Assembly: GCA_029582155.1 (NCBI GenBank)
Contig: CM055899.1
Location: 73,836,886 to 73,900,885 of the forward strand
Length of the DNA: 64,000 nucleotides
DNA from: Panopea generosa
Taxonomy: Eukaryota; Mollusca; Bivalvia; Adapedonta; Hiatellidae
Reading direction: 5' to 3'
The position numbers and the translations under genes are program-made. This document shows, in pieces, positions 7,995 through 50,443 of this stretch (positions are counted from its first letter, which is position 1; each line of letters opens with the position of its first letter). The notes below the pieces were generated by a model that was not told where the DNA came from, ran no database searches, and saw only the letters and a list, made by a program, of their open reading frames with translations.

Positions 7995-8648
7995 CCTACG
8001 ATACCTGATAGAAACAGTAACAAAGAACTCATGCAGTTTTGAATACCAAGTTTGATGAGGAAAATAAACGATTAGAGAAACTGGACATATTAGAAAAGTG
8101 GGTGAATGACTTTGATGTGAAAATAAGTAGACTGTGGCCTGACCTGGATGTGCGTGTTTCAAAAAACACTGAAAACGTAAAATCACAAAATAAATATCTC
8201 AAAGAAACTTTGACTGACATTCAATCAAAGTCCATGATAGATAATTTGATAATCGGTGGCGTTGATGAACAACTAAATGAAACGGAGGCGACTACTGAAA
8301 TACATGTAAAAATATTTTTCAATATACACCTCAAAATTCTACAAGAAAAAGTTGATGAAATAAAATTTCACCGAGTGCACAGAACCGGTCCGAAAATACC
8401 AAATAGACCAAGGAAAATCGTCGTTGTGTTTAAGGAAACGAGAGACAAAACGTACGTTAAACGTTGCCTGAATGATACTGGTTTATTAATGCACGATCAA
8501 TACCCAGCGGAGGTCGTCGTTAATACCATTCCTTAAAAAAGCAAAGGATGACGGGAAGGAAGCTTACATCCGGTACAATAAGTTGATCGTAAACGGGAGC
8601 GAGTATACGGTAAAATCCCAGCGTAGGAGACAACCGAGGATGGTGTGA
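7995..8648 (+). pseudogene. LINE ORF1, coiled-coil RNA-binding-like protein (broken)
   Basis: The main open part (8039-8536) starts without an ATG and encodes a charged helical region (DEENKRLEKLDILEKWVNDF) suited to a coiled coil, then IQSKSMIDNLIIGGVDE and HRVHRTGPKIPNRPRKIVVV, the pattern of L1-like ORF1 RRM domains. Upstream residues ending NSNKELMQF lie in a different frame, so a one-base shift sits at about 8038. Another shift near 8535 moves the C-terminus (KKAKDDGKEAYIRY ... RRRQPRMV, stop at 8646-8648) into a third frame. The stop nearly touches the start of the endonuclease, as in LINEs with adjoining ORFs. Confidence 0.7.
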
Positions 8649-15417: not shown

Positions 15418-16175
15418 TTTTACTACGATGGTGATAAATTACGATGGTGAAAAATTCGAAAAAATAATGATGATAAACTACGATGGTAAAAAGTCGAAAC
15501 TACAATGGTGATAAACTGCGATGATGAAAAGTCGAAATTGCGGTGGTTAAAAGTGGAAACATCGATTGTGATAAACTTCGATGGTGAATAGTCGAAATTA
15601 CGATGACGAAAAGTCAAAACTACGATGGTTATAAACTATGGTGGTGAAATGTCGAAACTATGATAGTGATAAACTACGATGGTAATAAACTTTGATGATG
15701 AAAAGTCGAAACTACGATAGTGATAAACTACGATGGTGAAAAGTCGAAACTACGGTGGTGAAAAACTACGATAATGAACATTCGAAATTACGATGATGAA
15801 AAGTCGACACTACGATGGTGATAAACTACGATGGTAAAAAGTCGAAACTACGATGGTGATAAACTACGATGATGAAGAATCGAAATTACTATGGTGATAA
15901 ACTACGATGTCTACGATGGTGAAAAAGTCAAAACAACGATGTTGATAAACTACGGTGGTGAAACGTCGAAATTACGATGGTGACAAACTACGATGATGAA
16001 AAGTCGAAATTATGGTTGTGAAAAGTCAAACAACGAATTTTGACCATCGTAGTTTCACGTTTTCACAATCCTAGCTTTGAGTTTCTTCATCGTATCTCGA
16101 CTTCCTCATCGTAGTTTTGCGTTTTCGCCATCTTAGTTTCGACTTTTCACCATCGTAGTTTCGCCGTCCTGTTAC
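15418..16175 (-). mobile_element. Foldback hairpin element, 22-bp-unit family, member 1
   Basis: About 600 bp of degenerate direct units built from ACTACGATGGTGAAAAGTCG and ACTACGATGGTGATAAACT are followed, from about 16036, by the reverse complement (TTTTCACCATCGTAGTTTCG). A transcript or single strand would fold back on itself. The right end reads CGCCGTCCTGTT, the complement of the ACAGGAAGGCG end seen in other members. The opposite GGTGTCCCGTTGG end is missing on the left. No coding capacity. Confidence 0.7.
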
Positions 16176-16861
16176 TCATATGCAAGCGAAACTAAAAGCA
16201 CGGTACATTTTATATATTGTTCGACTGTAGTTTCAAATATATCTTTGTCTATGTTTATGTAACAGTGCATTTACATAATGTAGCAAAGCTATGCATTTAA
16301 ACGTAACGTCTTACACATTAATTCTGTACTGTTCTACATATAGAGACATGCACTTCTGGAACACTGGATACATTACCAATGGTTCTTAAAGTGTCTTATT
16401 CCCATAGACAGTCCGCTGTTGGTCCAATTATGCAGAAAAAAACATGGGATTGACCAGGTTGCTTTTTCATAATTTCGATTGTTCGATGGCACCCCTTCAT
16501 TTTTGCCCATTTGTTGCAGTGTATCACTACGCATCTTTAAACTGTTATTGCATCAGCAAACAGTTCCCAATGTCACCAAAACTTTGCAGAAACTATTAAA
16601 ATGTTCCAATGCTCCCATATGCACAAAGAAATATGACATTTTATGCATTTTTAATAAAAAAAATGCCCAGCCGCTTTACACAGCTTTAATTTCTTAGGCA
16701 TAAGAATCTTGCTACCGTCATGTAAGGGAGGTAATTCTTCAGCGAGAGACATAAAGCCTGCTAACGATTCAACTTATTTGTATACATCATTAATATGACT
16801 TACTAAGTCCCTGATATATCTCCTTCTTTTTAATATATCTTTTTTCTTCGAAGGAAAAGGT
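16176..16861. other. No recognised feature
   Basis: The open frame at 16479-16697 has no motif I recognise. Nothing else supported. Confidence 0.5.
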
Positions 16862-16950
16862 CTGTCCCTCGATTGCGTTGAGAGCTCAGAGAGCTTATAT
16901 GATTCGCTATCGAGTTGGCATTCTGAGTGGACTAGTATTTAGTGTTGTTG
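16862..16950 (-). mobile_element. Fragment of tRNA-derived SINE, family B
   Basis: The segment with CTCGATTGCG, CTCAGAGAGCTTATATGA and ACTAGTATTTAGTGTT aligns with the body of the complete copy at 30526-30727. The tRNA head is absent. Confidence 0.55.
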
Positions 16951-16974
16951 GATAGATAAAAGATACAAGATTGG

Positions 16975-17159
16975 GAAAAGTCGAAACTGCGATTACAAAA
17001 CATCGAAACAACGATGGTCAAAAGTCGAAACAACGAAGCTACGATAGTGAAAAGACGAAACACACTCTCGTGGATTTAACTATTTATCATCGAAGTTTCG
17101 TTTTTTCGACTTTACTTAATTTGATAAATATGCCGTGATGGCCCCAACTGGATACCTTA
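16975..17159 (+). mobile_element. Foldback element, 22-bp-unit family, member 2 (short)
   Basis: A few units of AAAAGTCGAAAC with ACGATGGTCA are followed by inverted TTTCGACTTTACTTAATTTG and the family end ATATGCCGTGATGGCCCCAA, here continued as CTGGATACC in place of CGGGACACC. Only the terminal part of one element remains. Confidence 0.65.
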
Positions 17160-22796: not shown

Positions 22797-24543
22797 GTGA
22801 AAAATTTACGTTTCTGTACATATGATAAGCATACACGGTATTATGAATTTAAAGACGAATTAGTTGCCACTAAGCATTAATGCAATACTGTATATAACTA
22901 CAGTAGTGTGCACACAAAATACTGAAAAATAGTGTTTATCTATACACATGTTACTATATATAGTAACAAAAATGAGCATGTTTTAAGCCGGCTATTGCCT
23001 TCATGCGCTGATTATCACTTATCGGCCCGGGCCGAAAACTCATAATCATAATCGGCCCGGTGAACACGTGCGCGTGAAACCAATCATTGTCAGTTTGTTT
23101 TCAACATGTCGGTTTATTCTTTCACGGATAAAAAGTAATTGTTTTTCTTTAAAAAAAATCGCTGAGAAGGTATTAAGTGTTTGTGTTCATTATTTTATTA
23201 TTTCCATTCTGTTTCTAATGTAAACAAATCAAGGGAAGCAACTGCATAGTGACCTACATTTGAAACTGAAAAACAAATATATATCTTAAACTACGACGTC
23301 AACGTCACAATGACGTAAAAGCTCAGTTGGTTATATTAAATTTTAACAATCTGAACGTCGTGTGTTTAAGACGTGTCATATCGGTTTCTTTTTGTTTTAA
23401 ATTTAAATTATTTTTATTATTATTTTTCTTTCATTATATACACGGTTGAAATAAAAATAAAGTATGTGTGCATATAATTTAGAAGCACGTATAATAAAGA
23501 GGTTAATTAATGGACATATGAGCATTACCTTGTAGTGGTAACAGTCGCGTCGAAAGTAATTACTCTCTTTGAGCGGCGCCATACCGACGTTGACGTTTGC
23601 TTTAAAGCTTTTTTTTTGACATAGGAAAGGGTGAAAGAATTGAATTGTGTAACAATTCCACTTTGCATTTTGTCTAAATAGCTAACAATCATTGTACAGT
23701 ATATTGTATGAAATCACATAACAAAATAAAAAAATCGCTTGGTTTGTTTTTTTTGTAATTTTAATTTGAACCTTTTTTCAGAATTGAGCGTCATATTTCG
23801 AAAATCATTAAAAAGGTAAGATAGAAATCGGCTGTTATGACTACATCGAAGGTCATGAGAAACCACAACAATGTTTGTCATTAATAAACAAGTTATTTCG
23901 TATTTTTAAACAAACCACCTTTCGATACTGGTTTAATGTGCTTTGATAAGTACTGACACATGTATGTATATTTCTGTAATATATTATGATTCATAAATAA
24001 TATTTCAGTTTATATTACACAATGTAAATGTTAGAATGCATTACACTAATTGTGGACTAAATAAAACGATTGTTGAATATGGTGTTGGTTGTAAAATATA
24101 TAATGTTGTTTAAAATTTATGATTGAAACTTAATTGTCATGTTAAAATCACATCCTTGAATGAAATACATACAAAATTTGTCGAAATAGAGTGTTGTTTT
24201 TTCGTATAAAAAAAAACTTTATGTCTATTGTTTCGAATCAGTTTGGTTATAATAAAAATAATGGAAACGCAAACAATATCCATGTATATACATTAAACTT
24301 AGCTTTAATAAATATTGCCTGAAACTATTTTGAATGTGATTTCCGTCATATTTTCTTTAACCTTCCATACGTGCACCGTATATAACTTTTAAAACCATCT
24401 GGTAAATAAGTGAACAAAATTATAACAGTGACAATAAGTGAAGGCATTAACTAAAACACATCGGGGCAAATTCACATTCGCTGATGAACGTGTACGTCAT
24501 CCAAATCATATTAACTGGAAAACATGACTTGCTCAAATAAGAA
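22797..24543. other. No gene recognised
   Basis: Contains two nearby ATCGGCCCGG motifs (23021 and 23051) in a locally GC-richer patch and an AACATGTCGGTTTATTC start-like stretch at about 23102. This might be promoter or first-exon sequence, but no second exon can be identified. Confidence 0.3.
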
Positions 24544-24646
24544 TGCAACAGGACGAGAAAAATATGCAGCCAGTCCGTGACTCGAACCGGGACCCTTCGC
24601 TTACAGAGTGAATGCTCTACCGACTGAGCTAACCGGACCGCTTACA
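24544..24646 (-). repeat. LTR-like repeat A with tRNA-Thr-like sequence
   Basis: Minus strand: GTCCGGTTAGCTCAGTCGG followed by TAGAGC (D arm), anticodon loop TCTGTAA (TGT), then CCCGGTTCGAGTCACGG (T arm). Terminal bases are TG on the plus side (TGCAACAGG) and CTTACA. Confidence 0.75.
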
Positions 24647-24773
24647 TACATTCTCTCCTAGTAGGTTATGTATATATTGTGATATATTCCCTCATTAATT
24701 TGGAATTCGTCAACGAATTTCCATAGAGACAAGAGAATCATGTGAATGTTTCTTAGAATGTATATGTCACAAC

Positions 24774-24790
24774 CCCACGTTGGGCGCCAA
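24774..24790 (-). promoter_or_regulatory. Primer-binding site, tRNA-Lys(CTT) complement
   Basis: The plus strand CCCCACGTTGGGCGCCA equals the 3' end of animal tRNA-Lys(CTT) with its CCA tail; the minus strand is therefore the primer-binding site. It abuts repeat B with one base between. A second site, with one mismatch, sits at 25013-25029 next to repeat C. Confidence 0.8.
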
Positions 24791-24894
24791 TATAACAGGA
24801 CGAGAAAACCATGCAGCCAGTCCGGGACTCAACCCCGGGACACTTTGCTTACATGGCAAATGCTCTACCAAGTAAGCTAACCGGACCGCTTAAA
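24791..24894 (-). repeat. LTR-like repeat B with tRNA-Thr-like sequence
   Basis: Same organisation. Anticodon loop CATGTAA (TGT). Terminal TG/CA dinucleotides are mutated (TATAACAGG and CTTAAA on the plus strand). Confidence 0.75.
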
Positions 24895-25029
24895 TACATT
24901 CTTTACTAGTACATACTGTTATATATTCCATCACGAATTTGGAATTTGTCCCTGGATTTCCATAGAAACGTGAGAATCATGTGAATGTTTCTCGAAATAT
25001 ATATGTCACTATCCCACGTTGGGCGCCAA

Positions 25030-25133
25030 TGTAACAGGGCGAGAAAAATATGCAGCCAGTCCGGGACTCGACCCAGGGACACTTTGCTTACAAGGCAAAT
25101 GCTCTACCGACTGAGCTAACCGGACCGCTTACA
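25030..25133 (-). repeat. LTR-like repeat C with tRNA-Thr-like sequence
   Basis: Best-preserved repeat, 104 bp, TGTAAC...CTTACA on the plus strand. Anticodon loop CTTGTAA (TGT), with a paired stem TTTGC/GCAAA and an intact D arm. A further 42 bp to 25175 match the spacer that follows repeat A, showing that the array was longer or was truncated here. Confidence 0.8.
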
Positions 25134-25249
25134 TACATTTCCCGCTTAGTAGGTTACATATACACTGTGACATGAAAATAAGAAAGTAAAACTCTGAGAA
25201 AAAAGCACTTACTGGTCTTATTTACATGTACACAATTAAATTATGAACA

Positions 25250-26835: not shown

Positions 26836-28676
26836 GCAACCTATTATAAGATGTTGAAAAATATGATATTTATATAATCTATCAGTGTGCAACTGGTGAA
26901 AAGATGTTAAAACTGGGATATGATTTATCAGCGTGCAACTGCATAGCTGTCAATGCTCAAATGAACCTTAGAGTGATTTTTGATTCCTATATCGTCTACA
27001 GTGTGTTCTGGGGTGTTTTCTACACTAGCAGACGACGCAATGATGTTTACATTGACATCGGGTAACGATTATTATGTGTTAGTATATTATATACTAACAC
27101 CGTTTCCGGTGGCTAACATTACGTCAGATGCAACTTATACACGAACCAATGTTTTTACCGATTTATTCATAAAACCATAGCATTTATTTTCGTGAATTTT
27201 GTTTTAATTGAAATGCCTGAGAAATTACATAGTCAGCGTGAGACCGTGATTTCATTGCCAAAATTGTGAGACTCACGGCGAAACCGTGAGACTTGTCAGG
27301 TATGCAACTGATGATAAGATGTTAAAAATGGGATAGTTATAAGATTTATCAGTGTGCAACTAGTGAAAAAATGTTAAAAATGGGTTAGTAATATGATCTA
27401 TCAGTGTGCAACTGATGATAAGATGTTTAAAATGGGATAGATATTTGATCTATCAGTGCGCAACTGGTGATAAGATGTTAAAATTGGATAGTTATATGAT
27501 CTATCAGTTTGCAAACTGGTGATAAGATGTTAAAAATGGGATAGATATTTGTTCTAACAGCGCGCAACTGGTGATAAATGTTAAAATGGGATATATATAT
27601 GACCTATCAGTGCGCAACTGGTGATAAGATGTTAAAAAAAGGATAGCTATAAGATCTATCAGTGCGCAACTGGTGATAAGATGTTAAAAATGGGATAGTT
27701 ATATGATCTATCAGTGCGCAACTGGTGATAAGATGTTAAAATGGGATAGTAATAAGATCTATCAGTGCGCAACTGGTGATAAGATGTTAAAATGGGATAG
27801 TTATATGATCTATCAGTGCGCAAATGGTGATAAGATGTTAAAAATGAGATAGTGAGATAGTTATAAGATCTATCAGTGCGCAACTGGTGATAAGATGTTA
27901 ATAATGAGATAGTTATGAGATCTATCAATGCGCAACTGGTGATAAGATGCTAAAAATGGGATGGTTATATGATCTATCAGTGCGCAACTGGTGATAAGAT
28001 GTTAAAAATGGGATGGTTATATGATCTATCAGTGCGCAACTGGTGATAAGATGTTAAAAATGGGATAGATATATGATCTATTAGTGCGCAACTGGTGATT
28101 AGTTGTTAAAAATGGGATAGTTATATGATCTATCAGTGCGCAACTGGTGATAAGATGTTAAAAATGGGATAGTTACAAGATCTATCGGTGCGCAACTGGT
28201 GATAAGATGTTGAAAATGGGATGGTTACAAGATCTATCAGTGCGCAACTGGTGATAAGATGTTGAAAATGGGATGGTTACAAGATCTATCAGTGTGCAAC
28301 TGGTGATAAGATGTTGAAAATGGGATGGTTACAAGATCTATCAGTGCGCAACTGGTGATAAGATGTTAAAAAATGGGATGGTTACATGTTCTATCAGTGC
28401 GCAACTGGTGTTAAGATGTTAAAAATGGGATGGTTACATTTTTTCTTTCAGTGAGCAACTGGTGATATGCTTTTAAAAATGGGATGGTTACATGATCTAT
28501 CAGTGCGCAACTAGTGAAAAGATGTTAAAAATGGGATGGTTATATGATCTATCAGTGCGCAACTGGTGATAAGATGTTAAAAATAGGATAGTTATATGAT
28601 CTATCAGTGTGCAACTGGTTATAAGATGTTAAAAATGGGATAGTTATAAGATATATCACTGCGCAACTGGTGATAA
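26836..28676. repeat. 52-bp satellite array with one 0.36-kb interruption
   Basis: The unit reads GATCTATCAGTGCGCAACTG, then GTGATAAGATGTTAAAAATG and GGATAGTTATAT, 52 bp in total. About 26 units run continuously from 27301 to 28676. Two decayed units at 26836-26940 precede a 360-bp interruption (26941-27300) that is not of the same unit and contains the pair GTGAGACCGTGA and GTGAGACTCACGG. Sub-variants (GATAGTTATAT versus GATGGTTACAAG) are clustered, indicating local amplification. Frames across it are artefacts. Confidence 0.95.
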
Positions 28677-28861
28677 GAAATTATGGTGAAATTGATCATG
28701 ATATAATGAGTGTCAAATTGGTAGGTAGTTGGCAGTTTGTAGTTGAGGATTTGAATTACCAACTACCGTCAATTGTACAGATCTTTGATCAATTACGCGA
28801 GTTGTCAAAAATTCCTATTCGAAGGCCACGAACTTCCTTAAAACTTGACATGTTTGGATAA
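28677..28861 (+). CDS. Candidate terminal exon, unknown protein
   Basis: Immediately after the satellite, which ends ...GATAAG and so would provide an AG acceptor, an open frame reads GEIDHDIMSVKLVGSWQFVV, then LPSIVQIFDQLRELSKIP and PRTSLKLDMFG, stop. Composition is more protein-like than the surroundings, and an AATAAA polyadenylation-type signal follows at about 28936. If real, the satellite would lie in its last intron. I do not recognise the protein. It could equally be a chance frame. Confidence 0.25.
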
Positions 28862-31390: not shown

Positions 31391-31430
31391 GTGTACATGA
31401 ACGAGGTATGTCTCAAAAGTAAAAGGACGA

Positions 31431-34400
31431 TACACAACTTCACATAAATACTATTGCCTGGAATGTTTTGTGACGTAAATACTTTATATACACAACTACA
31501 TTATACTATTGCCTGGAATGTTTTGTGACGAAGATACGTCACTTTATATACACAACTATAAAATACTATTGCCCGGAATGTTTTGCGATGTAGATACTTT
31601 ATATACACAACTACATAATACTATTGCCTTAAATGTTTTGTGACGTAGATACTTTATATACACAACTACATCATGCTATTGCCCGGAATGTTTTGTGACG
31701 TAGATACTTTATATACACAACTACATAATACTATTGCCCGGAATGTTTTGTGATGTAGATACTTTATATACACAACTACAAAATACTATTGCCCGGAAAG
31801 TTTTGTGACGTAGTTACGTCACTTTATATACACAACTACATTATACTATTGCCCTGAATGTTTTGTGACGTAGATACTTTATAAACACAACTTCATAATT
31901 CTATTGCCCGGAATGTTTTGTGACGTAGATATTTTATATACACAACTACATAATACTATTGCCCGGAATGTTTTGTGATGTAGATACTGTATATACACAA
32001 CTACATAATACTATTGCCTAGAATGTTTAGTGACGTAGATACTTTAAATACACAACTACATAATACTATTGCCTGGAATGTTATGTAACGTAGATACTTT
32101 ATATACACAACTACATAATACTATTGCCCGGAATGTTTTGTGACGTAGATACTTTATATACACAACTACATAATACTATTGCCTGTTTTTTTTTGTGATG
32201 TAGATACTTTATATACACAACTACATAATACTATTGCCCGGAATGTTTTGTAACGAAGATACTTTATATACACAACTACATAATACTATTGCCTGTTTTT
32301 TTTTGTAATATAGATACTTTATATACACAACTACATACTACTATTGCCTGTTTTTTTGTGATGTAGATACTCAATATACACAACTACAAAATACTATTGC
32401 CTGTTTTTTTTGTGATGTAGATACTTTATATACACAACTGCATAATACTATTGCCTGGAATGTTTTGTGACGAAGATACTTTATATACACAACTACATAA
32501 TACTATTGCCTTGAATGTTTTGTGACATAGATACTTTTATACACAACTACATAACAGTATTGCCCGGAATGTTTTGTGACGTAGATACTTTATATACACA
32601 ACTACATACTACTTTTCCCGGAATGTTTTGTGATGTAGATACTTTATATACACAACAACGTAATTCTATTGTGCACAACTACATAATAGAATTGCCCGGA
32701 ATGTTTTGTGACGTAGATACTTTATATACACAACTACGTAACACTATTGCCCGGAATGTTTTGTGACGTAGATACTTTATATACACAACTACATAATACT
32801 ATTGCCCGGAATGTTTTGTGACGTAGATACTTTATAAACACAACTATATAATACATTTGCCAGGAATGTTTTGTGACGTAGATACTTTATATATACAAAT
32901 ACATTATAATATTTCCCGGAATGTTTTGTAACGTAGATACTTTATATACACAACTTCATACTACTATTGCCTGTTTTTTTTGTGATGTAGATAGTTTATA
33001 TACACAACAACATACTACTATTGCCTGTTTTTTTTGTGATATAGATACTCTATATATACATCTACATTATACTATTGCCCGGAATGTTTTCTGACGTAGA
33101 TACTTTATATACACAACTACATAATACTATTGTCTGGAATGTTTGTGACGTAGAAACTTATAATACACAACTACATAATACTATTGCCCGGAATGTTATG
33201 TAACGTAGATACTTTATATACACAACTACATAATACTATTGCCCGGAATGTTTTGTAACGTAGATACTTTATATACACAACTACATAATATTATTGCCTG
33301 TTTTTTTGTGATGTAGATACTTTATATAAACAACTACATAATACTATTTTCCGGAATGTTTTGTAACGAAGATACTTTACATACACAACTACATAATACT
33401 ATTACCATTTTTTTTGTAATATAGATACTTTATATACACAACTAGATACTACTATTGCCTGTTTTTTTGTGATGTAGATACTTTATATACACAACTACAA
33501 AATACTATTGCCTGTTTTTTTTGTGATGTAGATACTTTATATACACAACTACATAATACTATTGCCTGGAATGTTTTGTGACGTAGATACTTTATATACA
33601 CAAATACATAATACTATTGCCTTGAATGTTTTGTGACATAGATACTTTATATACACAACTACATAACAGTATTGCCCGGAATGTGACGTAGATACTTTAT
33701 ATACACAACTACTTAATAGTATTGCCCGGAATTTTTGTGACGTAGATACTTTATATACACAAATACATAATACTATTGCCTTGAATGTTTTGTGACATAG
33801 ATACTTTATATACACAACTACATAACAGTATTGCCCGGAATGTGACGTAGATACTTTATATACACAACTACTTAATAGTATTGCCCGGAATTTTTGTGAC
33901 GTAGATACTTTATATACACAAGTACATAATACTATTTCCCGGAATATTTTGTGACGTAGATACTTTATATACACAACTACATAATACTATTGTACACAAC
34001 TACATAATAGTACTGCCAGGAATGTTTTGTGCAGTAGATACTTTATATACACAACTTCATAATACTATTGCCTGGAATATTTTGTGAAATAGATACTTTA
34101 TATACACAACTACGTAACACTATTGCCCGATATGTTTTGTGATGTAGATACTTTGAATTCACAACTACATAATACTATTGCCCAGATTGTTTTGTGACGT
34201 AGATACTTTATATACACAACTACATAATACTATTGCCCGGAATGTGACGTAGATACTTTATATACACAACAACATACTACTGTTGCCAGTTTTTTTTGTG
34301 ACGTTGATACTTTATATACAAAACTACATACTACTATTGCCCGGAATGTTTTGTGATGTAGATACTTGATATCCACAACAACGTAATTCTATTGTACATA

Positions 34401-35438
34401 ACTCCATAATAGTATTGCCCGGAATGTTTTGTGATGTAGATACTTTATTTACACAACTACATAATAGTATTGCCCGGAATGTTTTGTGACGTAGATACTT
34501 TATGTACACAACTACATAATAGTATTGCCCGGAATGTTTTGTGACGTAGATACTTTATATACACAACTATAAAATACTATTTCCTTGAATGTTTTGTGAC
34601 GTAGACATGTCACTTTATATACACAACTACATAAAACTATTGCCTGGAATGTTTTTTGACGTAGATACTTTATATACACAACTACATAATACTATTGCAC
34701 ACAACTACATAATAGTATTGTACACAACTAGATACTTTATATAAACAACTACATAATAGTATTGCCCGGAATGTTTTGTGACGTAGATACTTTATATACA
34801 CAACTACATTATACTATTGCCCTGAATGTTTTGTGACGTAGATACTTTATAAACACAACTTCATAATTCTATTGCCCGGAATGTTTTGTGACGTAGATAT
34901 TTTATACACACAACTATATAATACTATTTCCTTGAATGTTTTGTGACGTAGATACGTCACTTTATATACACAACTATATAATACTATTTCCTTGAATGTT
35001 TTGTGACGTAGATACGTCACTTTATATACACAACTACATAATACTATTGCCCGGAATGTTTTGTGACGTAGATACTTTATATACACAACTATATAATACT
35101 ATTGCCCGGAATGTTTTGTGATGTAGATACTTTATATACACAACTACAAAATACTATTGCCCGGAATGTTTTGTAACGTAGATACTTTATATTTATAACT
35201 ACATAATACTATTGCCCGGAATGTTTTGTGACGTAGATACTTTATATACACAACTACATAATACTTTTGCCCGGAATGTTTTGTGATGTACATACTTTAT
35301 ATACACAACTACATAATACTATTGCCCGGAATGTTTTGTGACCTAGATAATTTATATACACAACTTCATTATACTATTGTCTGGAATGTTTTGTGACCTA
35401 GATACGTCACTTCATATACACAACCACATAATACTATT
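31431..35438. repeat. 55-bp satellite array, about 4 kb
   Basis: The unit is ACTATTGCCCGGAATGTTTT followed by GTGACGTAGATACTTTATAT and ACACAACTACATAAT, about 55 bp; roughly seventy units. Variants include a GCCTGTTTTTTTTGTGATG class, a truncated CCCGGAATGTGACG class and a 60-bp class with an added CGTCA. A 159-bp block (33602-33760) is repeated without visible change at 33761-33919. Because 55 is not a multiple of 3, the repetitive frames crossing it are not genes. Confidence 0.95.
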
Positions 35439-35764: not shown

Positions 35765-36790
35765 CTTATTGAGAATATTACTTTATCTATTACCAGAGAT
35801 GAAAATGTCACAAGCCTGAGTCTCTTATAGACCACTTAAACTCGGCTTATTGATAACATTACTGTATACTGTACCGAATAGAAAAAATGTCAATATTTCT
35901 TAAAGCACACGCCCGCGTCTCTGACAGACCACGTTACCTAAGCTTATTTATAATATAACTGTATATATAACCAATGAGAAACATATCAATGTTTCTTTAA
36001 GCACACGCTTTAGTCTCTGACGGACTATTTAACATAAGCTTATTTATAATATAACTGTATATATAACCAATGAGAAACATGTCAATGTTTCTTCAAGCAC
36101 ACGTCCGCGTCTCTGACAGACAACTGAACCTAAGCTTATTTATAATATAACTGTATATATAACCAATGAGAAACATGTCAATGTTTCTTTAAGCACACGC
36201 TTGAGTCTCTGACGGACTACTTAACATAAGCTTATTTATAATATAACTGTGTATATAACCAATGAGAAACATGACAATGTTTCTTTAAGCACACGCCCGC
36301 GTCTCTGACAGACAACTGAACCTAAGCTTATTGATAATATAACTGTATATATAACCAATGAGAAACATGTCAATATTTCTTTAAGCACACGCTTTAGTCT
36401 CTGACGGACTACTTAACATAAGCTTATTTATAATATAACTGTATATATAACCAATGAGAAACATGTCAATGTTTCTTTAAGCACACGCTTGAGTCTCTGA
36501 CGGACTACTTAACATAAGCTTATTTATAATATAACTGTATATATAACCAATGAGAAACATGTCAATGTTTCTTTAAGCACACGCTTTAGTCTCTGACGGA
36601 CTACTTAATATAAGCTTATTTATAATATAACTGTATATATAACCAATGAGAAACATGTCAATGTTTCTTTAAGCACACGCCCGCGTCTCTGGCAGACAAC
36701 TGAACCTAAGCTTATTTATAATATAACTGTATATATAACCAATGAGAAACATGTCAATATTTCTTTAAGCACACGCTTGAGTCTCTGCTG
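35765..36790. repeat. 96-bp satellite array
   Basis: AAGCTTATTTATAATATAAC recurs at 35940, 36036, 36132, 36228, 36324, 36420, 36516, 36612 and 36709 with a 96-bp period. Two main unit types differ in the segment after AGCACACGC: CCGCGTCTCTGACAGACAAC versus TTGAGTCTCTGACGGACTAC. They partly alternate, suggesting a dimeric higher-order unit. Two decayed units precede 35880. The array stops in the middle of a unit at the mariner relic. Confidence 0.95.
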
Positions 36791-37568: not shown

Positions 37569-38324
37569 CGTTTTATTGAGACATGCATTTGAATTGCTTT
37601 TGCTGTGTATGAAATTCGAATAAATTTGAAGTGGTTAACACTGTTAAAACTATCATTGTACAGTCTTTGAGGTTCTTAATCGGTTTCGACTTATGCTTAA
37701 TGAAACTGTATTACGAATATACATAAAATAGATATGGTTCAAATGATTTGACTTAGTTATGACATTATCAAACTGAGCCTAAATTTAAAATCAATACATG
37801 CTTGATCACTAGGCTTACAAGATTGCAGTTTGATTTATATCTATGTTCAGACTTATTCATTTTAAATTGGGAACCACGGATGGCATTGTGTAAGTAAGTA
37901 AGTAAGTCAATAAGTAAGTATTTTATGAAAGTGACATGTGTACATGTAACGTGATATACAGATATCAATTTATTAACAACACATCCGGCCCAAATGGTCA
38001 ACAATACAAATAAATAGATATATTATTTCACATAAAATTATGATTGAAATTAATCACCATAAAAAAATAAATAATAGATACAAGGTTATTACATAGCAAC
38101 ATATTACATAAGGATGTGGGTATAAAGTATAATTATTCTCCTTATATAAGTATTAACATTATATTATGTGTGTTTAAGTTTCCATCCTTGGCACCAACCA
38201 GTCCTATTTCCTTCTTTACATAACAATTAACAAAATACATATTGCTTCCAAATAGGACATGGTTCGTTTTAATGTTTTAAATATTATGAAACCCTTTTTA
38301 AATTTTACATATAATGTACAAGTA
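37569..38324. other. No gene recognised (duplicated in copy 2)
   Basis: AT-rich. A short (AGTA)n run at 37892-37920. Otherwise nothing supported. Confidence 0.5.
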
Positions 38325-38499
38325 CAGTCGAACCTGTCTTGAGCAACCAGTCAACTTAAGGAACGAACGTGGCTTTTTAAGATAGGTAGTTCTAATGCAG
38401 GTTTATTTGCTGTAAAAGCATATAAATGGGAAATACCAAATGTGGTCGCTTAAGACAAGTGACTTCTTAATAGAGGTGTCCGACTATTCAGGTTTGACA
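38325..38499. mobile_element. MITE with CAGTCGAACCTG-type terminal repeats
   Basis: Left end TACAGTCGAACCTGTCTTGA, right end CAGGTTTGACA, in inverted orientation with mismatches. In copy 2 the right end is followed by TA (46657), so TA flanks are likely. The interior has GGTCGCTTAAGACAAGTGAC-type words. No coding capacity. Confidence 0.55.
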
Positions 38500-38649
38500 T
38501 TCTTCCTCTTTCTTTACCGATAACCACCACACTTCTTGATTCATGTCTCGTTATGAACGCGTCCAAATCTCAACCATGCAAACCATTCAGTGTACTGTTT
38601 TTGTATTCTATTATAGTTATAAATTATATTGGGATTTAAGGGGTTTTAT

Positions 38650-39240
38650 ACGGTGTCCCGTTGGGGCCATGGCGGCATATTTATTAAATTAAATAAAGTC
38701 GAAACAACGAAACAACGAAACTACAATGGTGAAAAGTCGAAACAACGAAACAACGGTGGTAAAAAGTCGCAACTACGATGGTGAAAAGTTGAAACAACGA
38801 AACAACAAACCAACGATGGTTAAAAGTCGTAGTTCCGCGTTTTCACCATCGAAGTTTCGACTTTTCACCATCGTTGTTTCACGTTTTCACCACCGTAGCT
38901 TTGCGTTTTCACCATCGCTGTTTTGCGTTTTTACCATCGTAGTTTTGCGTAATCACCATCGTTGTTTCGACTTTTCACCATCGTAGTTTCGACTTTTCAC
39001 CATCGTAGTTTCGCGTTTTCACACCATCGTTGTTTCGACTTTTCACCATCGTTGTTTCGCGTTTTCACCATCGTAGTTTCGCGTTTTCACCATCGTTGTT
39101 TCGGCTTTTCAAAATCGTAGTTTCAACTTTTCACCATCGCTGATTCGTGTTTTCACCATCGTAGTTTCGCGTTTTCACCATCGTAGTTTCGCGTTTTCAT
39201 CATCGTTGTTTCGACTTTTCACCATCGTAGTTTCTGACTT
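38650..39240 (-). mobile_element. Foldback hairpin element, 22-bp-unit family, member 3
   Basis: The left end TACGGTGTCCCGTTGGGGCC is followed by CATATTTATTAAATTAAATA and AAGTCGAAACAACGAAAC, then about 150 bp of direct units and, from 38830, about 400 bp of inverted units (TTCACCATCGTAGTTTCG and TTCACCATCGTTGTTTCG). With member 4 it could form the two arms of one 1.85-kb composite, since the terminal 65 bp of both are inverted copies. Confidence 0.75.
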
Positions 39241-40055
39241 TGAACGTGGGGTTAAACATAAGGTAAGTATTTCGTATAAGCAAAGTTTAGTTGATATATT
39301 TTATCAATTCTGTTATATAATTACACCTCTATGTAAATAAATGAATTTGGTTTGCGTATTTTATATATATTTATTACTGCTCTTCTCTTAATAAACCATT
39401 AATTACACAATGGATAACTTTGTATACGACAAGTACATGTAGGCATCCGAGATGTCCCAGTATTTGTATAGAATGTGCACGCGCCCCGGTGTTCATCTCG
39501 TACACTGTCGTTTTTTTCATTGCAGGATAAAACTGTAAACAAAAGGACAGACACCGTGTTAGAGGAGAGCAAAAGCTCAAGAAAGTGTATGTGTGTGTAC
39601 GTGCGTTTGTTCGTGCGTACGTGCGCGTGTGTGATGTGTGTGTGAGAAAGAGAGAGAGATAGAACGAGAGTGGAAACGAATGAACGGAGGGATGGAGGGA
39701 AAGAGTGAGAGTGTGAGGACGGAAGGAATATAAAGAACTGTTCGTTATTTATTGTATTTTGTTATATTGATAACAAGTTAATTACCGAAAATGTGCATGA
39801 TTAATTAGTCTTAATTTAATATAATGTAAATGAGTGCGAACTATATCTTATATAGCTACTTGTACTGACAGCTCAAGTTAAGTTCAAAATGGCAATAAGT
39901 AAGTTAGTCATTCAGTCAGTCAGTAACAAAGTAAATGAGTAAATGAATTAATGTGCAAACAAGCAAATCAGTAATTCAGTCATCAATCAATCGATCAACG
40001 AATCAATAAATAAATTATTGATTCGCCCATGCTTTTAATTTCGACTGCGCATGAG
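39241..40055. other. Spacer between two inverted hairpin elements
   Basis: Unique sequence with a GT/GA-rich microsatellite at 39585-39670 and ATCAATCGATCAACGAATC words near 39985. No gene recognised. Present also in copy 2. Confidence 0.6.
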
Positions 40056-40494
40056 CAACAGGAAGGCGAAACTACGATGGTGAAAAGTCGAAACTAAGAT
40101 GGTGAAAAGTCGAAACAACGATGGTGTGGAAACGTGAAACTACGATGGTGAAAAGTTGGAACTACGATGGTGAAAAGTCGAAACTACGATGGTGAAAACG
40201 CGAAACAACGATGGTGAAAAGTCGAAACTAAGATCGTGAAAAGTCGAAACAACGATGGTGAAAACGCGAAACTACGATGGTGAAAAGTCGAAATAACGAA
40301 ACAACAATGATGAAAAGTCGAAATCATTTCGATTTTTCACAATCGTAGTTTCGACTTTTCACTTTCGTAGTTGCGACTTTTCACCATCGTTGTTTCGTTG
40401 TTTCGACTTTTCAACATCGTAGTTCCGTTTTTTCGTTGTTTCGACTTTACTTAATTTAATAAATATGTCGCGGTGTCCCCAACGGGACACCGTA
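40056..40494 (+). mobile_element. Foldback hairpin element, 22-bp-unit family, member 4
   Basis: Left end CAACAGGAAGGCGAAACTAC. Direct units with core ACGATGGTGAAAAGT run to about 40320 and inverted units from 40325. Right end CTTAATTTAATAAATATGTC then CCCCAACGGGACACCGTA. Both family ends are present, so this is a reference copy. Confidence 0.8.
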
Positions 40495-40882
40495 GTTTCC
40501 TTTTATTCTCTTATACCTATTTCAGCAATATCTGATATCTGCATAACCTATCGGCATTCACTCACTTGAAATCTTGATGACTCATGTCTTTAGCAACTCA
40601 AATCCCCAGTTTGAGACGGACGTTCGTTCATGCCTGGACTGTTTATCGACTGATAGCGTAAGTTCAATCTCATAAATATTAACTTTAGATTATAAACATT
40701 ATTAAGCATTTATATTAAAAAACGTATACATATATTTATATTATCATCAACAAAAATTGGTAAAGATAACCAATAAGTTTGAATGAAGTGTGGTTTTACT
40801 CAGGAAGACTTCGAGCGTGATTTATCTAAATAATGTATACTAGTATATAGATATATAGAGAGAGACCTATGTAAATATATAA

Positions 40883-40954
<72 letters not shown>

Positions 40955-41344
40955 GTATCAATAATTGATGCAGAAGCTGTATCACGTGTAGAAAGTGTCT
41001 CGTTTAAGCTCTTGGATATCCGTATATTGAACTATATATTTTGGCATTTTGTATCTTGCTCGAAATTTTGAGACACCTTATCAACATATGCATATATCAC
41101 TGGTTATAGCCAGGAAGTAATGTAGGATAAACTGTTTTACAATCGATGTAAAATAAAAAGCTGTAAAATCAGATATCTTTATTATGTAATCACTGTAATC
41201 ATTGCGCATAGCACACATTTAACAATATTAACTTTGGCGAACATCTGATCAAAGTTGTATTTTTTTTTCACCCACCGTTGTCAAGTTATTAAAATATAAT
41301 AACGATGACATTCAAATAAAATAATAAAAATACAAATAATGATA
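40495..41344. other. No gene recognised
   Basis: Contains the microsatellite listed at 40882. Otherwise AT-rich with nothing supported. Confidence 0.5.
40882..40954. repeat. (GA)n(CAGA)n microsatellite
   Basis: Compound dinucleotide/tetranucleotide run. The copy-2 version (48920-48977) is shorter. Confidence 0.95.
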
Positions 41345-41560
41345 ATACAATCTAACCTGTCCTTGCGGCCACCTCTTATAAGCTGTCACCTGTGTTAAGT
41401 GGCCACTTCAAAATCCCCCCGTGTAAATTGCCTATATAAAGTACATGTATTAAACGGTCACCTCTTTAATGCGGCCAGTCTATATCATCCCAAACAATGC
41501 CCATAAGCGAACAGCGGCCAGGTGTAAGCGGTCAGATGTAGCGGCCGACCCTTATGACTT
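41345..41560. repeat. Decayed GGCCACCTC-type transposon relic
   Basis: Blocks CTAACCTGTCCTTGCGGCCA, AACGGTCACCTCTTTAATGC and AAGCGGTCAGATGTAGCGGC resemble the interior words of the MITE at 38325 and of widespread invertebrate elements with GGTCACC/TTAAG words. Ends cannot be defined. Confidence 0.35.
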
Positions 41561-41750
41561 ATCGGTCACACCTTTTGGCTGGCTGCTCTTCCGATCATAT
41601 TGTATAATCCAGTGATCAATTAACGCTTCTGCTTCTGTTATGAAAACCACCACTTTACCCAAAGCGAGTACGTATATACGTTCTCTAATAAGCAAATAGA
41701 ATAGCGAGATTAATGACGTAAGCGAAACTGTTACCTAGGCTCGGTACATG

Positions 41751-42215
41751 ACTGCCGAAACAACGATGGTGAAAACGCGAAAAAGCCAAAACTACGATGG
41801 TGAAAAGTCGAAACTACGATAGTGAAAGCGCGAAACTACGATGGTGAAAAGTCGAAACTGCAATAGTGAAAAGTCGAAACTACGATGGTGAAAACGCGAA
41901 TCAACGATTGAGAAAAGTCGAAACTACGATGGTGAAAACGCAAAACTACGATGGTGAAAAGTTGAAACTACGATTTTGAAAAGCCGAAACAACGATGATA
42001 CAAACGCGAAACTACTACAGTGAAAAGTCGAAACAATGATGTTGAAAACTTTTTACCATCGTAGTTTTGATTTTTCACCATCGTAGTTTCGACTTTTCAC
42101 CATTGTATTTTCGATTTTCACCATTGTTGTTTCGACTTTTCACCATCGTAGTTTCGTTGTTTCGACTTTACTTAATTTAATAAATATGCCGCGATGGCCC
42201 CAACGGGACTTCGTA
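41751..42215 (+). mobile_element. Foldback hairpin element, 22-bp-unit family, member 5
   Basis: Direct units with ACGATGGTGAAAACGCGAAA and ACGATGGTGAAAAGTCGAAA run to about 42045, then inverted units. Right end TAATAAATATGCCGCGATGG then CCCCAACGGGACTTCGTA. The ACAGGAAGGCG left end is replaced by CATGACTGCCGAAAC. Confidence 0.75.
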
Positions 42216-42734
42216 ATTTACGGTAGTTTTATTTAGGTTTATTGTCGCGTTAAAACACATTGGAAGCAAATTTAACTGAGGCGTGAATGCACAATTATAG
42301 AACTGGGTAAGATCAAAAAGATAATTGCAATTGGATAGTTTGTATAAATTATAATTGAATTAATTTTATCGCCTATGAATGCGGGTGCGAATTCAATGGG
42401 GAAAAAAAACAACATTATTTTTTCATATCACAATCAGATTGACCAGATGTATATCGTACACAATATCTGCTGCGAAAAGAAAGTTTTGCCAAATGGACAT
42501 AATATTTAATCAAACTGATCATTGCACAAAATATATTCTAAAATATATAATGGGTACAAAGAACTACCCTATCAGATAGGCATATGTAATTCGATTCACC
42601 TAAACAACATTAGCTAAACTAACATGTCGAAAGAAACAAAACTAGGACATAATTTCACAGTAGGTGTATATGTGCACATTTTACTTTTGATCAACCAATT
42701 TAACGGGAGTATGTCAAGAATGTCTTAAAATATA
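42216..42734. other. No gene recognised; short internal duplication
   Basis: GGACATAATATTTAATCAAA through CACCTAAACAACATTAGC (42495-42620) is a diverged relative of 44530-44670 (GGACATAATCCAATATATGA ... TACCTAAACCAACATAGC), a dispersed repeat of unknown class. Confidence 0.4.
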
Positions 42735-45725: not shown

Positions 45726-46481
45726 CGTTTTATTGAGACATGCATTTGAATTGCTTTTGCTGTGTATGAAATTCGAATAAATTTGAAGTGGTTAACACTG
45801 TTAAAACTATCATTGTACAGTCTTTGAGGTTCTTAATCGGTTTCGACTTATGCTTAATGAAACTGTATTACGAATATACATAAAATAGATATGGTTCAAA
45901 TGATTTGACTTAGTTATGACATTATCAAACTGAGCCTAAATTTAAAATCAATACATGCTTGATCACTAGGCTTACAAGATTGCAGTTTGATTTATATCTA
46001 TGTTCAGACTTATTAATTTTAAATTGGGAACCACGGATGGCATTGTGTAAGTGAGTAAGTAAGTCAATAGGTAAATATTTTATGAAAGTGACATGTGTAC
46101 ATGTAACGTGATATACAGATATCAATTTTTTAACAACACATCCGGCCCAAATGGTCAACAGTACAAATAAATAGATATATTATTTCACATAAAATTATGA
46201 TTGAAATTAATCACCATAAAAAAATAAATAATAGATACAAGGTTATTACATAGCAACATATTACATAAGGATGTGGGTATAAAGTATAATTATTCTCCTT
46301 ATATAAGTATTAACATTATATTATGTGTGTTTAAGTTTCCATCCTTGGCACCAACCAGTCCTATTTCCTTCTTTACATAACAATTAACAAAATACATGTT
46401 GCTTCCAAATAGGACATGGTTCGTTCTAATGTTTTAAATATTATGAAACCCTTTTTAAATTTTACATATAATGTACAAGTA

Positions 46482-46656
46482 CAGTCGAACCTGTCTTGAG
46501 CAACCAGTCAACTTAACGAACGAACGTGGCTTTTTAAGGCAGGTAGTTCTAATGCAGGTTTATTTGCTCTAAAAGCATATAAATGGGAAATACCAAATGT
46601 GGTCGCTTAAGACAAGTGACTTCTTAATAGAGGTGTCCGACTACTCAGGTTTGACA
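46482..46656. mobile_element. MITE with CAGTCGAACCTG-type ends, copy 2
   Basis: Duplicate of 38325-38499. Right end CAGGTTTGACA is followed by TA, matching the TA before the left end. Confidence 0.55.
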
Positions 46657-46805
46657 TACTTCCTCTTTCTTTACCGATAACCACCACACTTCCTGATTCA
46701 TGTCTCGTTATGAACGCGTCCAAATCTCAACCATGCAAACCATTCAGTGTACTGTTTTTGTATTCTATTATAGTTATAAATTATATTGGGATTTAAGGGG
46801 TTTTA

Positions 46806-47300
46806 TACGGTGTCCCGTTGGGGCCATCGCGGCATATTTATTAAATTAAGTAAAGTCGAAACAACGAAACAACGAAACTACAATGGTGAAAAGTCGAAAA
46901 CAACGAAACAACTGTGGTAAAAAGTCGCAACTACGATGGTGAAAAGTTGAAACAACGAAACAACGAACCAACGATGGTGAAAAGTCGTAGTTCCGCGTTT
47001 TCACCATCGAAGTTTCGACTTTTCACCATCGTTGTTTCACCACCGTAACTTCGCGTTTTCACCATCGTTGTTTCGCGTTTTTACCATCGTAGTTTTGCGT
47101 AATCACCTTTGTTGTTTCGACTTTTCACCATCGTAGTTTCGACTTTTCACCATCGTAGTTTCGCGTTTTCACACCATCGTTGTTTCGACTTTTCACCATC
47201 GTTGTTTCGCGTTTTTACCATCGTAGTTTCGCGTTTTCACCATCATTGTTTCGGCTTTTCAAAATCGTAGTTTCTATTTTTTACCATCGTAGTTTCTGAC
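46806..47300 (-). mobile_element. Foldback hairpin, duplicate of member 3
   Basis: Left end TACGGTGTCCCGTTGGGGCC then ATCGCGGC. About 100 bp shorter than its partner through loss of inverted units. Confidence 0.75.
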
Positions 47301-48108
47301 TTTGAACATGGGGTTAAACATAAGGTAAGTATTTCGTATAAGCAAAGTTTAGTTGATATATTTCATCAATTCTGTTATATAATTACACCTTTATGTAAAT
47401 AAATGAATTTGGTTTTCGTATTTTATATATATTTATTACTGCTCTTCTCTTAATAAACCATTAATTACACAATGGATAACTTTGTATACGACAGGTACAT
47501 GTAGGCATCCGAGATGACCAAGTATTTGTATAGAATGTGCACGCGCCCCGGTGTTCATCGCGTACCCTGTCGTTTTTTTCATTGCAAAATAAAACTGTAA
47601 ACAAAAGGACAGAGGAGAGCAAAAGCTCAAGAAAGTGTATGTGTGTGTACGTGCGTTTGTTCGTGCGTACGTGCGCGTGTGCGTGTATGTGTGTGTGAGA
47701 AAGAGAGAGAGATAGAACGAGAGTGGAAACGAATGAAAGGAGGGATGGAGGGAAAGAGTGAGAGTGGGAGGACGGAAGGAATATAAAGAACTGTTCGTTA
47801 TTTATTGTATTTTGTTATATTGATAACAAGTTAATTACCGAAAATGTGCATGTTTAATTAGTCTTAATTTAATATAATGTAAATGAGTGCGAACTATATC
47901 TTATATAGATACTTGTACTGACAGCTAAAGTTAGGTTCAAAATGGCAATAAGTAAGTTAGTCATTCAGTCAGTCAGTAACAAAGTAAGTGAGTAAATGAA
48001 TTAATGTGCAAACAAGCAAATCAGTAATTCAGTCATCAATCAATCGATCAACGAATTAATAAATAAATTATTGATTCGCCCATGCTTTTAATTTCGACTG
48101 CGCATGAG

Positions 48109-48525
48109 CAACAGGAAGGCAAAACTTCGATGGTGAAAAGTCGAAACAACGATGGTGTGAAAACGTGAAACTACGATGGTGAAAAGTCGGAACTACGATG
48201 GTGAAAAGTCGAAACTATGATGGTGAAAACGCGAAACAACGATGGTGAAAAGTCGAAACTACGATGGTGAAAAGTCGAAACAACGATGATGAAAACGCGA
48301 AACTACGATGGTGAAAAGTCGAAACAACGAAACAACAATGGTGAAAACTCGAAATCATTTCGATTTTTCACAATCGTAGTTTCGACTTTTCACTTTCGTA
48401 GTTGCGACTTTTCACCATCGTTGTTTCGTTGTTTCGACTTTTTAACATCGTAGTCCCGTTGTTTCGTTGTTTCGACTTTACTTAATTTAATAAATATGTC
48501 GCGGTGTCCCCAACGGGACACCGTA
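48109..48525 (+). mobile_element. Foldback hairpin, duplicate of member 4
   Basis: Ends CAACAGGAAGGCAAAACTTC and CCCCAACGGGACACCGTA. One unit fewer in the direct arm than at 40056. Confidence 0.8.
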
Positions 48526-48919
48526 GTTTCCTTTTATTCTCTAATAACGATTTCAGCGATATCTGAAATCTGCATAATCTATCGGCATTCACTCACTTGA
48601 AATCTTGATGACTCATGTCTTTAGCAACTCAAATCCCCAGTTTGAGACGAACGTTCGTTCATGCCTGGACTGTTTATCGACTGATAGCGTAAGTTCAATC
48701 TCATCAATATTAACTTTAAATTATAAACATTATTAAGCATTTATAATAAAAAAACGTATACATATATTTATATTATCATCAACAAAAATTGGTAAAGATA
48801 ACCAATAAGTTTATCAATATGAATGAAGTGTGGTTCTACTCAGGAAGACTTCGAGCGTGATTTATCTAAATAATGTTTACTAGTATATAGATATATAGAG
48901 AGACATATGTAAATATATA

Positions 48920-48920
48920 A

Positions 48921-48977
<57 letters not shown>
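48920..48977. repeat. (GA)n(CAGA)n microsatellite, copy 2
   Basis: Shorter allele of the run at 40882-40954. Confidence 0.95.
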
Positions 48978-49769
48978 TATCAATAATTGATTCAGAAGCT
49001 GTATCACGTGTAGAAAGTGTCTCGTTTAAGCGCTTGGATATCTGTATATTGAATTATATATTTTGGGATTTTGTATCTTGCCCGAAATTTTGAGACACCT
49101 TATCAGCATATGCATATATCACTGGTTATAGCCAGGAAGTAATGTGGGATAAACTGTTTTACAATCGATGTAAAATAAAAAGCTGTAAAATCAGATATCT
49201 TTATTATGTAATCACTGTAATCATTGCGCATAGCACACATTTAACAATATTAACTTTGGCGAACATCTGATCAAAGTTGTATTTTTTTTTTCACCCACCG
49301 TTTTCAAGTTATTAAAATATAATAACGATGACATTCAAATAAAATAATAAAAATACAAATAATGATAATACAATCTAACCTGTCCTTGCGGCCACCTCTT
49401 ATAAGCTGTCACCTGTGTTAAGTGCCACTTCAAAATCCCCCCGTGTAAATTGCCTATATAAAGTACATGTATTAAACGGTCACCTCTTTAATGCGACCAG
49501 TCTATATCATCCCAAACAATGCCCATAAGCGAACAGCGGCCAGGTGTAAGCGGTCAGATGTAGCGGCCGACCCTTATGAAATATCGGTCACACCTTTTGG
49601 CTGACCGCTATTCCGATCATATTGTATAATCCCGTGATCAATTAACACTTCTGCTTCTGTTATGAAAACCACCACTTTACCCAAAGCGAGTACGTATATA
49701 CGTTCTCTAATAAGCAAATAGAATAGCGAGATTAATGACGTAAGCAAAACTGTTACCTAGGCTGGATAC

Positions 49770-50245: not shown

Positions 50246-50426
50246 ATTTACGGTAGTTTTATTTAGGTTTATTGTCGCGTTAAAACACATTGGAAGCAAA
50301 TTTAACTGAGGCGTGAATGGAAAATTATAGAACTGGGTAGGATCAAAAAGATAATTGCAATTGGATAGTTTGTATAAATTATAATTGAATTAATTTTATC
50401 GCCTATGAATGCGGGTGCGAATTCAA

Positions 50427-50443
50427 GGGGGGGGGGGGGGGGG
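50427..50443. repeat. Poly-G run specific to copy 2
   Basis: Seventeen G where copy 1 (about 42398) has TGGGG followed by A's. Confidence 0.9.

What the first reader, a model, noticed from the sequence alone, without database searches (positions are those of the whole stretch)
24544..25175. TRIM-like retroelement whose 104-bp LTRs are mostly a tRNA-Thr sequence
Three TG...CA repeats each carry a tRNA-Thr(TGT)-like cloverleaf in the element's sense orientation. Two are followed one base later by a 16-17-nt match to the tRNA-Lys(CTT) 3' end plus CCA (a primer-binding site), and a purine tract precedes a repeat. Known parallel: Cassandra TRIMs of plants carry 5S RNA in their LTRs. A TRIM with a Pol III tRNA promoter as its LTR would combine SINE-type transcription with LTR-type priming. 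I know of no described family with exactly this layout, but I could not search.
Basis: partly seen in the sequence, partly recalled or inferred. Interest (0 to 1): 0.85.

Follow-up and report, generated by a model that had tools for sequence, protein, structure and literature searches.

The report
tRNA-carrying mini retrotransposon in geoduck clam
This is a real, old copy of a small parasitic DNA element whose end repeats contain a transfer-RNA-like sequence; that kind of element was named Helenus in 2024, so it is a new member of a known kind, here in a clam not on the published host list.

Summary
Window 24544-25172 (element sense = minus strand) is an LTR-int-LTR-int-LTR array. The LTRs carry a tRNA-Thr(TGT)-like module; each internal part begins with a 16-17-nt match to the host tRNA-Lys(CTT) 3' end and ends with a purine tract. 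The stated sizes are wrong: LTRs are 143, 133 and 141 bp, not 104; two-LTR copies elsewhere are 352-397 bp, not 345.

The genome equals the published Panopea generosa (Pacific geoduck) assembly in its size statistics. The family is dispersed: 1,244 LTR 3' ends within 3 mismatches, reversed-pattern control 0. Of 32 independent insertions, 16 have exact 4-bp target duplications (re-paired mean 1.19), none 5-bp. The SINE-with-chance-PBS reading is refuted.

The layout is already described: Helenus TRIMs (Kojima 2024, PMC10886601), including tRNA-Lys primer sites and tRNA-Thr modules in bivalves. That paper's host table lists bivalves of Pteriomorphia only; geoduck is not among them. A T-run follows the tRNA in 95 of 104 LTRs, which suggests that the tRNA module is R. 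One broken Gypsy element with the same primer site is a candidate partner class. Transcription and partner use are inferred.

The parts
24544..25172 (-). whole element: LTR-int-LTR-int-LTR array
   Evidence: tandem period 239 by TRF
25030..25172 (-). LTR 1 (element 5'), 143 bp, TG...CA
25052..25125 (-). tRNA-Thr(TGT)-like module in LTR 1
   Evidence: ARAGORN; Rfam RF00005 47.8 bits
25107..25118 (-). A-box-like TAGCTCAGTCGG in LTR 1
   Evidence: box motifs as quoted in PMC10886601
25065..25072 (-). B-box-like GTCGAGTC in LTR 1 (LTR 3 has TTCGAGTC)
25044..25048 (-). T-run TTTTT after the tRNA module, putative Pol III terminator
   Evidence: TTTT in this part of 95 of 104 LTRs
24924..25029 (-). 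internal region 1, 106 bp
25013..25028 (-). primer-binding site, 16 nt, tRNA-Lys(CTT) 3' end
   Evidence: host tRNA
24924..24935 (-). degenerate purine tract CGTGATGGAATA
24791..24923 (-). LTR 2 (middle), 133 bp, ends TA...TA; T-run TTTT at 24805-24808
   Evidence: boundaries set by purine tract and primer site
24685..24790 (-). internal region 2, 106 bp
24773..24789 (-). primer-binding site, 17 nt, tRNA-Lys(CTT) 3' end
24685..24696 (-). purine tract AATGAGGGAATA
24544..24684 (-). LTR 3 (element 3'), 141 bp, TA...CA
24567..24638 (-). tRNA-like module in LTR 3
   Evidence: Rfam RF00005 33.4 bits
24558..24562 (-). T-run TTTTT in LTR 3, expected RNA 3' end
   Evidence: role inferred
25173..25176 (-). 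target duplication, element-left copy TTCA
24540..24543 (-). target duplication, element-right copy TTCT (TTCA in paralogues L003, L004)

Best explanation
An old array copy of a Helenus-type TRIM (a non-autonomous LTR retrotransposon) in Panopea generosa. Shown by sequence: LTRs with a tRNA-Thr(TGT)-like module, a tRNA-Lys(CTT) primer site one or two bases after the LTR end, a purine tract before the next LTR, TG/CA ends, and 4-bp target duplications. Inferred: Pol III starts near the tRNA module in the first LTR, reads through the T-run there, crosses the internal region and ends at the T-run of the last LTR, so that R = tRNA module with its T-run, U3 = the first ~47 bp, U5 = the last ~14 bp. 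Host tRNA-Lys primes minus-strand DNA and the purine tract primes plus-strand DNA. A Ty3/Gypsy element supplies reverse transcriptase and integrase in trans; integration makes the 4-bp duplication. The three-LTR form arose by recombination or template switching between LTRs. The locus was later copied by chromosomal duplication.
For: Target duplications: 16 of 32 independent insertions exact at 4 bp; re-paired flanks give mean 1.19, maximum 6 in 2,000; 0 of 32 at 5 bp. Dispersal: 1,244 LTR ends, control 0. Of 20 sampled zero-mismatch LTR ends, 17 sit in LTR/internal arrangements, 3 are truncated LTR pieces, 0 are intact solo LTRs. Primer site: 57 exact 17-mers, control 0; host tRNA-Lys(CTT) genes. 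Primer site and purine tract in 48 aligned internal regions. T-run in the 3' part of 95 of 104 LTRs, TTTT in the first 110 nt of 3 of 104 and in 2 of 48 internal regions. Gypsy with the same 15-nt primer site at C1:43553252: RVT_1 E 6.9e-22, RNase H domains E 2.3e-18 and 1.1e-18. Published family: PMC10886601.
Against: No RNA data. Across 73 LTRs the A box (0.930) and B box (0.927) are no more conserved than the U3-like part (0.922), and the T-run stretch is less so (0.906). The two window modules folded do not give a cloverleaf as best fold (z -1.59 and -0.87). The T-run lies in every LTR, so a Pol III start must read through it. The one Gypsy examined shares only the 15-nt primer site and the LTR-end CTGTAACA with the TRIM. 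16 of 32 insertions lack an exact duplication, the window locus among them.
Confidence: 0.93

Rival explanations
1. Ordinary tRNA-derived SINE, or tandem tRNA-like repeat, with a chance primer-site match.
For: tRNA head with A- and B-box-like motifs; some copies are tandem (L007, five LTRs).
Against: Two LTRs around an internal region, recurrent primer site with reversed-pattern control 0, purine tract, TG/CA ends, and duplications of exactly 4 bp with none of 5 bp or more in 32 insertions.
Confidence: 0.02
2. Helenus TRIM as above, but transcribed by Pol II, the tRNA module being a relic that serves only as R or filler.
For: A and B boxes and T-run not specially conserved; strict A-box pattern in 72, GGTTCGA in 58 and TTTT in 95 of 104 LTRs; no cloverleaf as best fold.
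Against: T-run right after the tRNA module and rare elsewhere in the element, which shared descent alone could also explain. I made no search for Pol II promoter or poly(A) signals.
Confidence: 0.2
3. The LTR modules are working tRNA-Thr genes spread by the element.
For: ARAGORN calls a sense-strand tRNA in 43 of 104 distinct LTRs, 41 of them Thr(TGT), against mean 24.6 (19-30) in 40 column-shuffled sets.
Against: That excess is confounded by unequal age of the copies. No cloverleaf as best fold in the two window modules. PMC10886601 argues that Helenus is unlikely to encode functional tRNA, while noting seven bivalve families that could encode tRNA-Thr.
Confidence: 0.05

Closest known systems
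Helenus TRIMs (Kojima 2024, PMC10886601)
   Same: tRNA-derived sequence in the LTRs; primer site and purine tract between two LTRs; length within 311-1263 bp for two-LTR copies; 4-bp target duplications in animals; tRNA-Lys primer and tRNA-Thr prediction among bivalve families; tandem arrays noted for LTR-11_DR.
   Different: Host is Panopea (order Adapedonta; subclass Heterodonta recalled), absent from the paper's host table, whose bivalves are all Pteriomorphia. The main text does not discuss a T-run terminator in Helenus. Sequence comparison with its families was not possible (supplement not open to me).
Cassandra TRIMs of plants
   Same: Pol III gene-derived module (5S) in the LTR; arrays of about three LTRs reported (PMC7215508, passages).
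   Different: 5S rRNA, not tRNA; plants; Pol III transcription described there (PMC10886601), not tested here.
biv-TRIM of bivalves (PMC6934838)
   Same: Bivalve TRIM with a short purine tract (7 bp).
   Different: LTRs 202-218 bp, internal 77-80 bp, no unambiguous primer site, and no tRNA module mentioned in the passages I saw.
Ty3/Gypsy elements with a tRNA-Lys primer (Gypsy-125_CGi in PMC10886601; broken element at G000 C1:43553252 here)
   Same: Same primer site (15 nt) and, for the element here, the LTR-end octamer CTGTAACA found in some TRIM copies.
   Different: Protein-coding; no other similarity to TRIM LTR or internal region found.

Membership tests
Helenus | tRNA-derived sequence inside the LTRs | tested here: met
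   window; 11 of 13 TRIM loci given to ARAGORN carry a tRNA-Thr call; 43 of 104 distinct LTRs
Helenus | TRIM: two LTRs, total under about 1 kb | tested here: met
   LTR-int-LTR copies of 352-397 bp in 25 of 32 independent insertions
Helenus | primer site complementary to a host tRNA next to the 5' LTR | tested here: met
Helenus | purine tract before the 3' LTR | tested here: met
   GAGGGAA-type tract, with variants, in 48 aligned internal regions
Helenus | 4-bp target duplications (animal Helenus) | tested here: met
   16 of 32 exact at 4 bp, 0 of 32 at 5 bp
Helenus | A box TRGCY/YGG and B box GGTTC in most LTRs | tested here: met
   A-box pattern in 72 of 104, GGTTCGA in 58 of 104 LTRs; window LTR 1 departs in the B box
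Helenus | mobilised by Gypsy (animals) | tested here: inconclusive
   one broken Gypsy with the same primer site; 1 of 7 candidate sites examined
Helenus | sequence similarity to named Helenus families | not testable with these tools
   Table S1 and Repbase not available
TRIMp3 | functional Pol III promoter | not testable with these tools
   no RNA or ChIP data
SINE | no LTRs; target duplications of variable length | tested here: not met
   LTR-ended copies with fixed 4-bp duplications; LINE-type tails were not searched for

The most novel reading that the evidence does not exclude
The tRNA module plus its T-run is the R region of an LTR retroelement: a Pol III start and a leaky T-run terminator together define R, so one LTR gives two products, a short tRNA-like RNA of about 80 nt (stop at the first T-run) and a genomic RNA of about 330 nt (stop at the last). 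Bivalve Helenus would then be older than Pteriomorphia, or have moved horizontally into the geoduck lineage.
Probability: 0.4. Interest if true: 0.5.

Novelty: new member of a known kind. Interest (0 to 1): 0.3.

Why it matters
It confirms independently, with target duplications and a shuffle control, that tRNA-bearing TRIMs behave as true LTR elements, and adds a host outside those listed in 2024. A genome with over a thousand LTRs, one sampled pair 99.3% alike (L063), is a practical place to test whether Pol III can feed an LTR retrotransposition cycle in an animal. It also warns that tRNA-gene counts in such genomes may be inflated.

Tried and rejected
Host guess Gibbula magus (18 chromosomes, 1,470 Mb): rejected because chromosome sizes differ (part 1 of 3 seen). 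Panopea generosa accepted because total length, scaffold number, longest scaffold and scaffold N50 agree to the base.

SINE reading: rejected. Special conservation of A/B boxes or T-run: looked for, not found. Cloverleaf retention by column shuffling: excess seen, but confounded by unequal age of copies. Partner with the exact 17-nt primer site: 45 of 57 sites examined (40), all with the TRIM internal region; 12 not looked at singly. Partner by a 14-nt primer site: 45 hits, 7 of them a separate ACAATGG class, 1 of 7 examined; one further odd hit, L109, was looked at only around the site. Whether L086, L051 and L057 are LTR chimeras or truncations is unsettled: the genome search for it did not complete. 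My first comparison of TRIM and Gypsy (second part) was void because a script slice was empty; one search repeats it properly. Identities of the window LTRs used ends off by a few bases; one search gives the corrected ones.

Literature: searches of the open-licence library. 'Helenus' with 'retrotransposon': 2 papers, PMC10886601 and a meeting report, PMC12859917, that cites it in one sentence (passages). 'TRIMp3': 4 papers hold a word beginning so, PMC10886601 being the only one on mobile elements by title. Seen: PMC10886601 abstract, part 1 of 6, Results, Discussion, figure legends and tables, and passages; PMC6934838, PMC7215508, PMC10729735 and PMC12859917 passages; PMC10394393 part 1 of 3. 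No supplements.

Full report
WHAT IS THERE. On the minus strand, 25172 down to 24544, the window reads LTR (143 bp) - internal (106) - LTR (133) - internal (106) - LTR (141). Each internal region starts with T + TGGCGCCCAACGTGGG(G), the complement of a tRNA-Lys(CTT) 3' end with CCA, and ends with a purine-rich tract directly before the next LTR. The host has 44 exact copies of the matching tRNA 20-mer, reversed control 0, and ARAGORN calls tRNA-Lys(CTT) there in 4 of 4 loci checked, of 10 held. The LTR holds a tRNA-like module: ARAGORN finds one of the three in the window, as Thr(TGT), Rfam two of three.

HOST. The window lies in a genome of 1,474,161,289 bases in 39 contigs, with C1 = 101,196,518 and C9 = 73,788,920 bases. 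The Panopea generosa paper gives the same total, 39 scaffolds, longest 101,196,518 and N50 73,788,920 (PMC10729735, passages). The paper gives order Adapedonta; that this is Heterodonta is recalled.

FAMILY. The 32-mer at the LTR 3' end has 1,244 genome matches at up to 3 mismatches (632 + 612), the reversed pattern none. The 17-mer primer site has 57 exact matches, reversed none. To see what LTR ends belong to, I fetched 20 of the first 22 zero-mismatch sites listed (left out: one already held as L059, and C7:36913490). This favours well-kept LTRs. Of the 20, 16 adjoin a recognisable internal region and one more (L092) has two LTRs about 110 bp apart; 3 (L099, L100, L102) are truncated LTR pieces; none is an intact solo LTR. 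The script's solo flag on L095 is a match to the purine tract, not a target duplication.

INSERTION MECHANISM. All loci then held gave 63 records of elements with near-intact outer LTR ends and an internal part (one place may be held under several ids). They collapse to 32 independent insertions, merging records whose flanks are at least 9 of 12 alike on both sides. Exact duplications of 4 bp flank 16 of 32; re-pairing flanks at random gives 1.19 on average, at most 6 in 2,000 trials. Duplications of 5 or 6 bp: 0 of 32. The misses include array pieces, such as L025 whose left flank is a purine tract. The window locus reads TTCA/TTCT and its paralogues L003 and L004 TTCA/TTCA. One or two bases lie between the LTR CA and the primer site, and TA between GAGGGAA and TG, as expected if integrase trims two bases from the ends (established for retroviral integrases; inference here).

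ARRAYS. Of the 32, 25 are LTR-int-LTR, 4 have three LTRs, 1 has five, 2 are irregular. Cassandra forms arrays of about three LTRs (PMC7215508, passages), and tandem arrays are noted for LTR-11_DR (PMC10886601). The three window LTRs are 82.0-86.5% alike, so the array looks old. The locus occurs four times within C6:73.5-74.0 Mb; aligned stretches of 2.6-3.7 kb, element included, are 95-97% alike. That is a duplication of the region, not four insertions.

HOW IT PROBABLY WORKS. A T-run begins 3 nt after the tRNA module in window LTR 1. TTTT or longer lies in the 3' part of 95 of 104 distinct LTRs and TTTTT in 46; TTTT occurs in the first 110 nt of 3 of 104 LTRs and in 2 of 48 internal regions. 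Pol III stops at T-runs (established knowledge). If it starts at the tRNA in the first LTR and stops at the T-run of the last, the RNA has the retroviral order R(tRNA)-U5-PBS-internal-PPT-U3-R and must pass the first T-run, which a four-T run may allow. This is inference. Against it: A box 0.930, B box 0.927 and T-run stretch 0.906 mean conservation against 0.922 in the U3-like part (73 LTRs), and no cloverleaf as best fold of two window modules. The T-run may reflect shared descent only.

PARTNER. Of 57 exact primer sites, the 45 examined all carry the TRIM internal region; three (L051, L057, L086) lack a tRNA-type LTR on the 5' side. A looser pattern gave 45 hits, 7 of which read ACAATGG instead of ACATTGG. 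One of these, C1:43553252, has the LTR end CTGTAACA, a 15-nt primer site, and 3.3-5.0 kb downstream a broken Gypsy pol: RVT_1 (E 6.9e-22) and RNase H domains (E 2.3e-18, 1.1e-18). Beyond the primer site and that octamer no similarity to TRIM LTRs or internal regions was found at E <= 0.01. [quoted passage not shown]

COMPARISON WITH WHAT IS KNOWN. Kojima 2024 defines Helenus as TRIMs with tRNA-derived sequence in the LTRs, with primer site and purine tract, 4-bp duplications in animals, 51 families in five Pteriomorphia orders, seven bivalve families able to encode tRNA-Thr, and primers including tRNA-Lys. The features that I could test are met, except Gypsy mobilisation, which is inconclusive. 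Panopea is not in its host table and Heterodonta is not named in its main text. So this is a new member in a host group not listed there. In the open-licence library, searches found one further paper naming Helenus, a meeting report citing Kojima. Work outside that library and the supplement were not seen.

VERDICT. Observation mostly right, interpretation right, novelty already taken. Interest 0.3.

Noticed in passing
window 38000-42400 and 46157-50431: Tandem duplication of about 8 kb (paired 276-300-nt blocks 93-99% alike, spacing 8,022-8,157), each copy with arrays of a 22-bp unit (AAACTACGATGGTGAAAAGTCG) in both orientations.
   Followed up: partly
window 15422-17062: Further arrays of a like 22-bp unit, with a switch to the reverse complement near 16034.
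   Followed up: no
window 27304-28678, 31430-35438, 35809-36787: Long satellite-like arrays with periods 52, 55 and 96 bp.
   Followed up: no
window 58552-59955, minus strand: Reverse transcriptase open frame with RVT_1 match, E 1.6e-28; non-LTR type by recall, not tested.
   Followed up: partly
L016-L021, L036, L053, L079: The same TRIM copy sits inside a larger repeat: main aligned stretches of 1.4-2.4 kb, TRIM included, are 96-99% alike to L018, so it is carried by another mobile or duplicated sequence.
   Followed up: partly
L086 1-395, L051 1-1500, L057 1-1500: TRIM internal region and 3' LTR joined at the primer site to a 5' flank without the tRNA LTR; L086 and L057 flanks end in CTGTAACA plus one base. 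LTR chimera or truncation, unsettled.
   Followed up: partly
L110 1967-2545, minus strand: DDE transposase match (PF13358, E 9.3e-12) about 0.5-1 kb upstream of the candidate Gypsy primer site.
   Followed up: no
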